Assembly: GCA_036488875.1 (NCBI GenBank)
Contig: DASXGW010000002.1
Span: 1-64,000, forward strand
Length of the DNA: 64,000 nucleotides
Direction: 5' to 3'
From: Candidatus Baltobacteraceae bacterium
GTDB lineage: Bacteria; Vulcanimicrobiota; Vulcanimicrobiia; Vulcanimicrobiales; Vulcanimicrobiaceae
The number at the start of each line of letters is the position of its first letter. Position 1 is the stretch's first letter. The notes below the pieces were generated by a model. It worked only from the letters and a program-made list of their open reading frames with translations. It did not search any database and was not told where the DNA came from. The position numbers and the translations under genes were made by a program. This document shows, piece by piece, positions 53,470-57,858 of the stretch.

Positions 53470-53549
53470 GAATGTAAAGGCTTCGCCACGGCCTGATGAA
53501 GCCCGGCCAAAGGGACGCTTTTTGGACGAACGGGCCGCATGCTGCTAGC

Positions 53550-53729
53550 ATGGCAACGGCGATGTATCTGACGGTGTCCATCGGCTTGCTCCTGATGCTG
53601 TTCTGGAAGTACGCTTCGTCGGAACGCGCCCGGCGCCGGCGCGGCTGGTCGTTCGACCGGGCCGAGCGCGCAGAAGATCGGGAGGGCGCGATGGTACGGA
53701 GCGCGTCGAACTCTCGCGGGTGGCGGTAG
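53550..53729 (+). CDS. Possible small single-span membrane peptide
   Basis: An ATG at 53550 opens a 59-residue frame with one hydrophobic segment (MYLTVSIGLLLMLFWKYA) followed by a highly charged tail (SSERARRRRGWSFDRAERAED). The layout is that of a small membrane protein. There is no clear Shine-Dalgarno, no known family, and the tail runs to a stop just before the regulator remnant in the same frame. It could equally be chance coding in a decayed region. Confidence 0.35.
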   Translation: MATAMYLTVSIGLLLMLFWKYASSERARRRRGWSFDRAERAEDREGAMVRSASNSRGWR

Positions 53730-53790
53730 ATCGCTCCGGAAGCCGAAGCCTATTGCGCGCTGCCGTTCAATCGACAGCTGCTCGCGCACG
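53730..53790 (+). pseudogene. Remnant of the C-terminus of a second BTAD/AAA regulator
   Basis: In frame 3 these bases read ..EAEAYCALPFNRQLLA.., closely matching the C-terminal SAYSSLPFNRALLEGA of the regulator at 54103-57570. The DNA itself is similar (CCGTT.AATCG...GCTGCTCG). As in the intact copy, the stretch overlaps the 3' end of a convergent ~65-residue gene. Nothing upstream aligns, so the body of this copy has been lost. The alignment is short (~16 residues), so chance is not excluded, but the matching context supports a duplication followed by deletion. Confidence 0.5.
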
Positions 53791-53961
53791 CCAACGGTCG
53801 AGAAACTCGCACAACTCGCCGTAGTTTGTGAAGTAGTGGCGCTGACCCGACGAGACGTGGGTCACCGAGGCGCGCCAAAGACTACGGACCATTCGATCGC
53901 TCTCAGACCAGATCCGAATGACGAACATCTCGTCGCGGGAACGGCGTTGCGTGCTGGCCAT
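53767..53961 (-). CDS. Small conserved protein, paralogue of 57567-57764
   Basis: A 64-residue protein with the core WRASVTHVSSGQRHYFTNYGELCEFLDRW. A second copy at 57567-57764 keeps nearly every residue of this core (QVTHVTSRERHYFTNYGELC), so both are real genes. The fold looks like a short beta-hairpin followed by a helix; the charge balance suggests a soluble binding protein. On this strand GATAAT (53973-53968) ends 6 bases before the ATG, predicting a leaderless transcript. It is divergent from the large regulator and overlaps a remnant of another one. Function unknown; a link to the regulator is inferred from the repeated arrangement. Confidence 0.75.
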   Translation of the reverse strand: MASTQRRSRDEMFVIRIWSESDRMVRSLWRASVTHVSSGQRHYFTNYGELCEFLDRWRARAAVD

Positions 53962-53967
53962 GTTCGT

Positions 53968-53973
53968 ATTATC
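53968..53973 (-). promoter_or_regulatory. -10 element, leaderless, for the 64-residue gene
   Basis: ATTATC on the plus strand is GATAAT on the minus strand and ends 6 bases before the ATG at 53961. No Shine-Dalgarno is present. No recognisable -35 is seen. Confidence 0.5.
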
Positions 53974-54102
53974 TGGGCCTCGCGTCCACAAACCGTCCAG
54001 GTGTGAAGGGCTCGGGGGATCGGTCCCCGACCGCCTTCGGAGGGTCCTGGACGCTGGATGGACGGGAGCCGGACGATAATTAACGATACAGGTCACCTAG
54101 AT

Positions 54103-57100
54103 ATGGAGCGATTGGTTATCCGGCTCTTTGGAGAGCCGGGAGCGTTCTTCGACGGTAAGCCGTGGAAATGGTCGGCTCCGCCGCGTTGTTTCCCATTGCT
54201 GGCGCTTTTGGGACTTGCGCGCGAGACACCGCCGACGCGGGCTTGGCTGGCATCGACGATGTGGCCCGAAGAGATCGAGTCGGACGCGCGATCGAACCTG
54301 CGGCGCCACCTTCACCGGCTAGCTCGGGCCCTGCCGCAAGTCGAAGGCGTCGAATGGATTCGCGGCGACGAGCGATCGATCGCGTGGAATGACGCGGCGC
54401 CGGCGCGGCTCGACGTTCGCGCGTTTGAAGAAGCCGTCGCCGATCCCGCGCGCCGCGCCGAGGCCGTCGAGATGTACCGCGGCGATTTGCTCGAGGGATT
54501 CTACGATGAATACATTTTGGCCGAACGAGAACGGCTGCGTACGCTGTATACCGACGCGCTCGCGGATCTGATCCGCGAAGCACGCGCAAAACGCGATCTG
54601 CCCTCGGCCGTCCGTTTTGCCGAGCGTTTGCTGGCCGAGGACGAATGGCGCGAAGACGCGCTGCGCGAGTGGATTTCGGCGAAATACGCTTCGGGCGATC
54701 GCTCGGGCGCGCTTGCCGGCTACGAGCGGTTCGCGCGCCGTTTGCGCGAGGAGTTTTCCTCCGAGCCGATGCCGGAAACGACGGCACTGCGCGACGCGGT
54801 GCGAGCCGGAATCGCGTTGCCCGACGATCCGCAAGACGTACTGGAACATTCGGTGTCCTCGCTTGCGGCCGTTCGATCCCCGTTCGTGGGGCGATCGGAC
54901 GAGATGGAGAAGCTGCGCTCTGCGTGGACGCGCGCGGCGCGTAAGAGCGGAAGCGTGGCGTTCGTTTCGGGCGAGGCGGGTATCGGCAAATCGCGTCTCG
55001 TCGCCGAACTCGTAGCAATCGTGCGCGACCAAGGCGGCCACGCGCTCGTCGGAACGACGTCGAATCCGGAGGGCGAACCGTATCAGGCCGTTCTTTCGGC
55101 GCTGCGCGCGGGCTTGCCGAAAATCGCTCAGGCGCAACTCGATCGCGCGTGGCTCTCGTCGTTGGCCGGCGTTCTCCCCGAGATACACAGCCTTCGGCCC
55201 GACCTCAACGAAACCGAGGCGATCGAAAACGGCCGCGCGCGCGAGCGGCTGTTCGAGGCGTTCGTGCGAACCGTCGCGCAGCTCGGCGCGATGCGTCCGC
55301 TGTGCATCGTGCTGGAAGATCTGCACTGGGCCGGTCCCGCGACGATCGACGTACTGGCGGCGCTCGCGCGACGCGTGGGAACGCTGCCGGTGCTGGTCGT
55401 GGCGACGTACCGCAGCGAAGAATCGGCAACCGGCCATCCGTTACGGGAGTTGCGGACGCAGCTCGTGTCGGAGCGGCGTGCAATCGCCATTCCGCTCGAG
55501 CGCCTGTCGGAGTCGGACGTCACAAACGTGGTAAAGGCGCTCGCGGGCGACGATGCCGGCGCGACGCTCGGCGACAGCGTCGTGCGTTTGAGCGAAGGAA
55601 ACCCGCTCTTCGTCGTGCAGCTGCTCGAGGGATATCGCGAGACGGGTGAAGTTCCCGACACCTCGCACGCGTTGCGCAGCGTCGGCGACGTCATCGGCGC
55701 ACGCGCTAGCCGGCTGGACGACGAGGTACGTGCGGTCGCCGAAACCGCCGCGACGATCGGGCAGTCGTTTTCAGCCGACGTGGTCGCCGATATCGGCGGC
55801 TGGGACGAAAACGCCGTGCTGGACGCCGTAGGTGCGTTGATCGATCGTGCGCTCGTTCGCGAAAGTGGAAACGGATCGCTCGAATATGCATTCACGCACG
55901 CGTTGATCGCGGCGTCGATTTACGAGTGCTCCGATCCCGAGCAGCGAGCCGCGCGTCACCGGCGAGCGGCACAGGTTCTCCAACGGCGGCACGGCAGCGA
56001 TCGCGCCGAAAAGGCGGCGATCGCGCGGCACTGGAACCTCGCCGGCGATGCGTCGCGCGCCGCGGCGGCGTACGTGACGGCGGCGCAGGCGGCGCTCGAC
56101 GTGTACGCGCGCGAAGAAGCGATTTCACACGCGTATGCCGCCTTCGCTCTTGCACCGGACGACCGGCTGCGGTTTGAAGCGCTCGAGATCGCGTGCCGCA
56201 CGCAGATCCGCACCGGCGTCGTCGAGCGTTGGAAGCGCGATGTAGATCGGCTGGTTAGAGTCGCGTCTTCGCTGGGAATTGACGAACAGTTTGCCGCGCT
56301 CAAGCTGCAGGAACGCTATGCAGCCCAGATCGTCGACTACTCACTCGAGCTATCGGCCGTCGACGCAATGTTTGCCCTGGCGAAACGCTCCGGAAACGAG
56401 GAGCATCTCGCGGAAGCGTATTATGCGCGCGGATTCTTGGAAGGCCAGCGCGGCGACGTCGGTGCCAGTCTCGCAACGCTCTCCACGGCACGCGAAATCG
56501 CGTCGAAGCTTCCCGTCGACGATCTCAACGCGCGGATCGGGCGGCAGTTCGTCAGCATGCTCGGGCGCTCGGGAAACCTCGCGCGGGCGCGGTCGGAACT
56601 CTCGGTGCAGCGCCAGCTGGTCGAGAGCGCAAACGCGTCGGCCGACCGGCGTTTGGATTTGCTGGCTTCCGAATCGACGCTCGCCGCGATGCTCGAAGAC
56701 GGCGCGTGGATGGAGCGCATCGGAACCGAGATGATGTCGCTGGCGTGCACGATCGGTGACGAGTACCTCGAAGCACGCGCCTATGCGACGCTGGCCCACT
56801 CAGCGTACATGCGCCGCGATTTCGCCGCGATTCGCAGTAACTACGATCGGGCGATCGAGCACTTCACCAACGTCGGCGAGCTGCGCGCCGTACGGGTGAC
56901 GTACATCAATCGCAGCGAGCTGGAGCTGCGCGTCGGACGCGTTGACGAAGCGATGCGATGGCTCGAAAAATGTTTATCGGGCGGGGATCAGCTGCACGGC
57001 CTCGACGGCGTCAGCGCGTATCGCCTCAACCGTATCGAGGCACTCTTGCTGCTCGGCCGCGCGCGCGAAGCGTTGGCCGAGGCACACGAGGCCTACGAAC

Positions 57101-57570
57101 TGAGCTTGAGCGTCTCCGAGACGCGTTTCATGGATCAGGCGCTCACCGTGCTCGGCGCGGCCGAGTCGCTGACCGGGGACGTTGACGGTGCGGTCAAACA
57201 TTTGAGCGAGGCGTTGGAAATGGCCCGTACGCGTGAGGCGTGGGGCGACTACGCAACGACGCTATGTTACCTCGTCGAGGCGTTGTTGAGCGCGGGGCGC
57301 ATCGACGATGCACGCCGCTACGGCGATGGCCTCGAGGAAACGTTTTTGCACTATCATGCGCTGACGATTCATCCGACGCGGCTGTGCGCGACTTTGGCTC
57401 GCGTGGCCGAAGATTCCGGCGACGCGGCCGGCGCGCAGGTCTGGAGAACCCGCGGTTTGTCGTTGCTGGAGGCGGAGCTCAAGCGGTTCAGCGATCCAGC
57501 CGACGTCTCGGCGTATTCGTCGTTACCGTTTAATCGCGCGCTGCTCGAGGGCGCCGCGATGACGGCCTAA
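54103..57570 (+). CDS. Large transcriptional regulator: winged helix, BTAD, AAA ATPase and TPR
   Basis: With ATG at 54103 the protein has 1155 residues (an upstream in-frame ATG at 54058 would add 15). Residues ~1-95 resemble an OmpR/SARP-type winged helix (WPEEIESDARSNLRRHLHRL), ~100-245 a bacterial transcriptional activator domain (EMYRGDLLEGFYDEYILAE; ALREWISAKYASGDRSGAL). A STAND-type ATPase follows with SGEAGIGKSRLVAEL (Walker A, ~residue 289) and CIVLEDLHWAGPATIDVL (Walker B, ~404). The rest is helical TPR-like repeats. This is the SARP/AfsR-like architecture, where nucleotide state and a ligand gate promoter binding. GATAAT at 54075-54080 may be its -10. It is flanked by two paralogous ~65-residue genes. 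Confidence 0.88.
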   Translation: MERLVIRLFGEPGAFFDGKPWKWSAPPRCFPLLALLGLARETPPTRAWLASTMWPEEIESDARSNLRRHLHRLARALPQVEGVEWIRGDERSIAWNDAAPARLDVRAFEEAVADPARRAEAVEMYRGDLLEGFYDEYILAERERLRTLYTDALADLIREARAKRDLPSAVRFAERLLAEDEWREDALREWISAKYASGDRSGALAGYERFARRLREEFSSEPMPETTALRDAVRAGIALPDDPQDVLEHSVSSLAAVRSPFVGRSDEMEKLRSAWTRAARKSGSVAFVSGEAGIGKSRLVAELVAIVRDQGGHALVGTTSNPEGEPYQAVLSALRAGLPKIAQAQLDRAWLSSLAGVLPEIHSLRPDLNETEAIENGRARERLFEAFVRTVAQLGAMRPLCIVLEDLHWAGPATIDVLAALARRVGTLPVLVVATYRSEESATGHPLRELRTQLVSERRAIAIPLERLSESDVTNVVKALAGDDAGATLGDSVVRLSEGNPLFVVQLLEGYRETGEVPDTSHALRSVGDVIGARASRLDDEVRAVAETAATIGQSFSADVVADIGGWDENAVLDAVGALIDRALVRESGNGSLEYAFTHALIAASIYECSDPEQRAARHRRAAQVLQRRHGSDRAEKAAIARHWNLAGDASRAAAAYVTAAQAALDVYAREEAISHAYAAFALAPDDRLRFEALEIACRTQIRTGVVERWKRDVDRLVRVASSLGIDEQFAALKLQERYAAQIVDYSLELSAVDAMFALAKRSGNEEHLAEAYYARGFLEGQRGDVGASLATLSTAREIASKLPVDDLNARIGRQFVSMLGRSGNLARARSELSVQRQLVESANASADRRLDLLASESTLAAMLEDGAWMERIGTEMMSLACTIGDEYLEARAYATLAHSAYMRRDFAAIRSNYDRAIEHFTNVGELRAVRVTYINRSELELRVGRVDEAMRWLEKCLSGGDQLHGLDGVSAYRLNRIEALLLLGRAREALAEAHEAYELSLSVSETRFMDQALTVLGAAESLTGDVDGAVKHLSEALEMARTREAWGDYATTLCYLVEALLSAGRIDDARRYGDGLEETFLHYHALTIHPTRLCATLARVAEDSGDAAGAQVWRTRGLSLLEAELKRFSDPADVSAYSSLPFNRALLEGAAMTA

Positions 57571-57764
57571 ACGACCGCGGGCCGTTCGCGGCAGCGATCG
57601 ATGAACTCGCAGAGCTCGCCATAGTTGGTGAAGTAGTGCCGCTCGCGGGACGTCACGTGCGTGACCTGCGCCCGCCAGCGTCCCGAAGGCTTGTCGCCGT
57701 CGTCTCGCCACATCCGAACGACGAAGAGATGGTCGCGTACCCGCGGGCGTTCGGCTTCACTCAT
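57567..57764 (-). CDS. Small conserved protein, paralogue of 53767-53961
   Basis: A 65-residue protein: HLFVVRMW at the start, core QVTHVTSRERHYFTNYGELC, then EFIDRCRERPAVV. The other copy lies on the far side of the regulator gene, same orientation. The last 4 bases overlap the regulator stop convergently. TACAAT on this strand (57776-57771) ends 6 bases before the ATG, again a leaderless pattern, which supports the start. Unknown function; the strictly kept RHYFTNYGELCEF stretch would be the binding surface. Confidence 0.78.
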   Translation of the reverse strand: MSEAERPRVRDHLFVVRMWRDDGDKPSGRWRAQVTHVTSRERHYFTNYGELCEFIDRCRERPAVV

Positions 57765-57770
57765 GAAGCA

Positions 57771-57776
57771 ATTGTA
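57771..57776 (-). promoter_or_regulatory. -10 element, leaderless, for the 65-residue gene
   Basis: ATTGTA on the plus strand is TACAAT on the minus strand (5 of 6 to TATAAT) and lies 6 bases upstream of the ATG at 57764, the same spacing as at the paralogous gene. No -35 is seen. Confidence 0.5.
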
Positions 57777-57858
57777 AAGAGACCGCCGTCCAGAACTCGT
57801 CCATATGGCCCGGCCGGGCGCAGGCGAAGCGCCGGTTTGGGTCAAAACGGGGCCGGTC

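What the first reader, a model, noticed from the sequence alone, without database searches (positions are those of the whole stretch)
53730..57776. Two paralogous ~65-residue genes paired with a SARP-like regulator, and a fragment of a second regulator
Order: regulator C-terminal fragment (plus), small gene (minus), full regulator (plus), small gene (minus). Each small gene overlaps the 3' end of a regulator copy convergently, and the fragment (AYCALPFNRQLL) matches the intact end (AYSSLPFNRALL). This indicates duplication of a regulator plus small-protein unit and later loss of one regulator. The small proteins share the near-invariant RHYFTNYGELCEF and are leaderless. A small partner or antagonist of a large STAND-type regulator would be a new regulatory pair.
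Basis: partly seen in the sequence, partly recalled or inferred. Interest (0 to 1): 0.68.

Follow-up and report, generated by a model that had tools for sequence, protein, structure and literature searches.

The report
Small proteins switched on by SARP
Two small genes beside a large antibiotic-regulator-like (SARP) gene carry that regulator's kind of binding site in their promoters, and the same gene pairing recurs in three bacterial phyla, so an uncharacterised small-protein family appears to be a standing target of this class of switch.

Summary
Both ~65-residue genes are real paralogues under purifying selection. The regulator is a large SARP (DNA-binding/BTAD domain, AAA_16 ATPase, TPR). 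The upstream fragment is a true remnant of a regulator C-terminus (E 1.4e-5; next window hit 0.12). The small family matches nothing in Pfam, NCBIfam, PHROGs, PADLOC or PDB sequences, yet occurs in Eremiobacterota, Chloroflexota and Lysobacter-like proteobacteria. It lies within 2.5 kb of a BTAD regulator in 33/45, 29/43 and 11/11 sampled cases (about 1% expected).

New here: both small genes and the regulator carry SARP-type direct repeats (TGGACG-N5-TGGACG, 11-bp period) 9-10 bp before a -10 box; the small genes look leaderless. The exact motif occurs 12 times in this genome and 15 in its sister; a reversed control gives 0. Other sites mostly precede lipoprotein genes, plus a STAS protein. 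Across phyla, small-gene promoters are enriched for 11-bp repeats over other spacings and other genes. The small gene is best read as a conserved SARP target, wired like AfsR-afsS in Streptomyces. What the protein does, including feedback or antagonism, is untested. All evidence is computational.

The parts
53767..53961 (-). sp1, 64-residue protein, predicted leaderless
   Evidence: ORF and family profile; purifying selection against the G041 orthologue
57567..57764 (-). sp2, 65-residue paralogue of sp1, predicted leaderless; its stop overlaps the regulator's stop
   Evidence: predicted beta-beta-beta-alpha fold, pLDDT 81.6
54103..57570 (+). large SARP regulator (DNA-binding/BTAD, AAA_16, TPR), 1155 aa from the likely start; ORF-list start is 54058
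   Evidence: Pfam hits; start chosen relative to the operator and G041
53748..53783 (+). Remnant of a regulator C-terminus (AYCALPFNRQLL)
   Evidence: Profile E 1.4e-5 in the window six-frame translation, next best 0.12
53983..53999 (-). Putative SARP operator of sp1, TGGACGGTTTGTGGACG; -10 GATAAT at about 53968-53973
   Evidence: Exact pattern match and geometry
54048..54064 (+). Putative SARP operator of the regulator itself, TGGACGCTGGATGGACG; -10 GATAAT at about 54075-54080
57787..57803 (-). Putative SARP operator of sp2, TGGACGAGTTCTGGACG; -10 TACAAT at about 57771-57776

Best explanation
The locus is a self-activating SARP switch whose nearest targets are two copies of a conserved small protein. 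The large SARP binds tandem TGGACG repeats one helical turn apart, overlapping the -35 region of the sp1, sp2 and regulator promoters, and recruits RNA polymerase, as AfsR does at afsS. The same operator precedes about nine other loci in this genome, mostly genes for lipoproteins (some with beta-propeller or beta-helix domains) and a STAS protein. Shown by sequence: gene pairing, operator geometry, genome-wide motif enrichment, conservation. Inferred: that this regulator is the one that binds this motif, that it activates rather than represses, and that the small protein then acts as an intracellular regulatory output, most likely feeding back on SARP-dependent transcription. The confidence given is for the wiring (small genes as SARP targets); the feedback step alone deserves about 0.35.
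For: Exact TGGACG-N5-TGGACG: 12 sites in this genome and 15 in G041, reversed control 0; most of the other 97 family genomes have 0-1. The only three exact window sites lie in front of sp1, sp2 and the regulator. Of 12 own-genome sites, 8 have a start codon 21-23 nt downstream; TANNNT boxes peak at offset 9-10. Published SARP sites: direct repeats 11 bp apart, 3' repeat 8 bp from the -10 (PMC10936776). Identical 7-mers at lag 11 upstream of small genes: 14/44 Eremiobacterota, 12/43 Chloroflexota, 6/11 proteobacteria, against 6/186, 1/137 and 1/37 control genes. Linkage to BTAD genes 33/45, 29/43, 11/11. Shared targets in G041: regulator, small genes, STAS protein, two small lipoproteins.
Against: No binding or expression data. 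At least three other long SARPs in this genome could bind TGGACG. About a third to a half of small genes show no clear lag-11 repeat, and several have no BTAD gene nearby on an intact contig. Four of the 12 own-genome sites do not have the 21-23 nt geometry. Nothing here tests the proposed feedback role.
Confidence: 0.7

Rival explanations
1. The small protein is an antagonist or co-factor that binds the SARP itself and sets the switch by feedback.
For: Tight linkage to SARP genes across three phyla, in all relative orientations, and presence beside BTAD-only regulators, which would place the contact on the SARP domain. Being a target is what a feedback regulator would be.
Against: No interaction data. 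Several loci carry two copies beside one regulator, and some copies lie in front of other operons without a nearby SARP.
Confidence: 0.35
2. The small protein is an effector or accessory of the secreted or injection-system products made by the regulon, not a regulator.
For: In Chloroflexota it lies upstream, on the same strand, of Pvc16 and tail-sheath genes or of surface proteins; in a Lysobacter relative it precedes a giant trypsin/amidase/C70 protein. Most regulon members here look like lipoproteins.
Against: No signal peptide was seen in the small proteins by eye; the window copies are not followed by such genes; neighbours vary while the SARP link stays.
Confidence: 0.3
3. The pairing is passive: linked genes that moved together, with the repeats being a general feature of these promoters.
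For: Linkage alone can persist by shared transfer.
Against: Lag-11 repeats are not enriched in control genes of the same loci, the motif is rare in family genomes outside this genus, and orientation changes while proximity stays.
Confidence: 0.05

Closest known systems
AfsR-afsS (Streptomyces)
   Same: Large SARP with ATPase and TPR domains activates an adjacent gene for a 63-residue protein through two 11-bp direct repeats overlapping -35 (PMC10936776, PMC6988585).
   Different: AfsS is described as sigma-like with three 12-residue repeats (PMC2267785); the family here is predicted to be a single beta-beta-beta-alpha domain and no such repeats were seen. AfsS was not aligned to it. Phyla, operator sequence and regulon differ.
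SARP/BTAD regulators with heptameric repeat operators
   Same: BTAD domain, direct heptameric repeats near -35 with short spacers (PMC10972967).
   Different: Targets here are small proteins and lipoproteins rather than known antibiotic clusters.
BTAD genes associated with eCIS loci
   Same: BTAD is reported as a recurrent eCIS-associated domain (PMC8213781); some Chloroflexota small genes precede eCIS genes.
   Different: The passages read there do not mention this small protein; the window has no eCIS genes beside the pair.

Membership tests
Large SARP regulators (AfsR type) | BTAD domain with STAND/AAA ATPase and TPR | tested here: met
   BTAD E 6.4e-17, AAA_16 E 1.3e-26, TPR_12 E 5.5e-9
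Large SARP regulators (AfsR type) | Target promoters with direct repeats 11 bp apart near -35 and -10 about 8 bp away | tested here: met
   Sequence geometry only, binding not shown
Large SARP regulators (AfsR type) | The protein binds these repeats and activates transcription | not testable with these tools
   Needs footprinting or transcription assays
NCBIfam AfsR equivalog NF053617 | Score over the curated cut-off of 1430 bits | tested here: not met
   31.9 bits
AfsS | Three repeats of a 12-residue segment | tested here: not met
   No such repeat seen on reading the two 64-65-residue sequences; no repeat program was run on the proteins
AfsS | Sequence homology to AfsS | not tested
dsRBD-, MBD- or similar nucleic-acid-binding folds | Significant structural match | tested here: inconclusive
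   Best Foldseek E 1.0, all VIA-align Z under 5

The most novel reading that the evidence does not exclude
The small protein is the founder of a widespread family of SARP co-regulators, induced by the SARP and acting back on SARP-dependent transcription in at least three phyla.
Probability: 0.3. Interest if true: 0.75.

Novelty: new variant of a known kind. Interest (0 to 1): 0.58.

Why it matters
It gives a predicted operator, an explicit short target list and a conserved small-protein output for SARP switches outside Actinomycetota, so a poorly characterised regulator class becomes directly testable by footprinting and reporter assays. It also suggests that a SARP driving a small adjacent protein, known from AfsR-AfsS, is a recurring design.

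Tried and rejected
Pfam, NCBIfam, PHROGs, PADLOC and PDB sequence searches gave no usable hit for the small protein. Fold searches gave no significant match, so a DNA- or RNA-binding fold is not claimed; family charge is mixed, median pI about 6. Phage and plasmid collections had no match. A loss-of-regulator story for the fragment is kept only as one option. Long open frames were examined for fusions: most look like non-coding upstream extension, and one 209-residue form has a long C-terminal extension with no Pfam hit. The lag test upstream of sp1 and sp2 in the window picks other, chance 6/7 pairs first, so the window sites rest on the exact-pattern search. Literature searches found no paper describing this small protein beside SARPs.

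Full report
Observation. The window holds sp1 (53767-53961, minus), a large regulator (likely 54103-57570, plus) and sp2 (57567-57764, minus). The regulator has BTAD, AAA_16 and TPR domains. sp1 and sp2 are about 56-58% identical. Against the sister species G041, sp1 shows dN/dS near 0.05; sp2 shows dN 0.10 with saturated dS.

Fragment. A profile made from regulator C-termini of other genomes, window excluded, finds two places in the window: the intact C-terminus (E 1.8e-9) and 53730-53790 (E 1.4e-5); the next is 0.12. So the remnant is real. G041 has the same gene order and flanks without it. Either a regulator copy was lost, or a segment with sp2 and the regulator's last codons was duplicated; the evidence does not decide.

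Family. A profile of the small protein finds it in 37 of 121 searched genomes of the phylum, in 62 of 301 sampled genomes of the phylum of a Chloroflexi record, and in Lysobacter, Pseudoxanthomonas and Hydrogenophaga records. No library names it. AlphaFold2 gives beta-beta-beta-alpha, pLDDT 81.6, with no significant fold match.

Linkage. A BTAD gene lies within 2.5 kb in 33/45 Eremiobacterota, 29/43 Chloroflexota and 11/11 proteobacterial small genes; roughly 1% would be expected by chance. Seven and five of the misses are near contig ends. The loci were fetched because they held the small gene, not because of the regulator. Orientation varies: divergent, convergent and same-strand all occur. 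In a Lysobacter relative the partner has BTAD but no AAA or TPR domain. Two of the four long BTAD regulators in this genome have a small gene, two do not.

Operators. By eye, and then by search, the promoters of sp1, sp2 and the regulator carry TGGACG-N5-TGGACG. With no mismatch there are 12 sites in this genome and 15 in G041; the reversed pattern gives 0 in both. With one mismatch allowed, counts are 37 and 38 against 12 and 9. Most other family genomes have none or one. TANNNT boxes follow at offset 9-10 and start codons cluster at 21-22 nt; 8 of the 12 own-genome sites have a start at 21-23 nt, p about 3e-6 under a rough 10% expectation. This matches published SARP sites (PMC10936776; PMC10972967). 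The motif was chosen after seeing it at this locus, so the genome-wide count and the sister genome are the independent tests.

Predicted regulon. Besides the three local genes, first genes after the sites include seven proteins with lipobox-like N-termini, a STAS-domain protein and a 255-residue protein. One holds a Vgb_lyase domain, one NHL repeats, one a weak beta-helix match. Orthologous or related targets recur in G041.

Generality. Upstream of small genes, identical 7-mers at lag 11 occur in 14/44 Eremiobacterota, 12/43 Chloroflexota and 6/11 proteobacteria, against 0-2 at other lags. Control genes of the same loci give 6/186, 1/137 and 1/37; Fisher p 2e-7, 1e-7 and 2e-4. Relatedness among loci means these p values overstate independence. 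The third small gene of this genome (C13) has its own pair, CGGCACG-N4-CGGCACG, 21 nt before its ATG, as expected if each SARP reads its own heptamer.

Mechanism. The supported reading is a self-activating SARP with the small genes as direct targets. The wiring resembles AfsR-afsS, where AfsR activates an adjacent gene for a 63-residue protein (PMC6988585). AfsS is described as having three 12-residue repeats (PMC2267785), which were not seen on reading these sequences, so membership is not claimed. Whether the small protein feeds back on the SARP, acts on other genes or serves the exported products is open.

Noticed in passing
L112 7576-12027: A 1484-residue ORF with Trypsin_2, Amidase_2 and Peptidase_C70 domains follows the small gene in Pseudoxanthomonas.
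   Followed up: partly
L175 6203-10228; L179 6336-8258: Pvc16 and tail-sheath genes of contractile injection systems follow the small gene in Chloroflexota.
   Followed up: partly
L188 6388-10269; L198 2326-5907: Regulators with BTAD at the C-terminus behind STAND-like and HEAT or TPR regions, beside small genes.
   Followed up: partly
L236 2170-2796: A 209-residue small-family protein with a long C-terminal extension and no Pfam hit, beside a BTAD gene.
   Followed up: partly
G141 (genome of L104): Sixteen matches of the small family in one Chloroflexi genome.
   Followed up: no
window 53475-53740: About 270 bp more than in G041 between the cobalamin adenosyltransferase gene and sp1, next to the regulator remnant.
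   Followed up: partly
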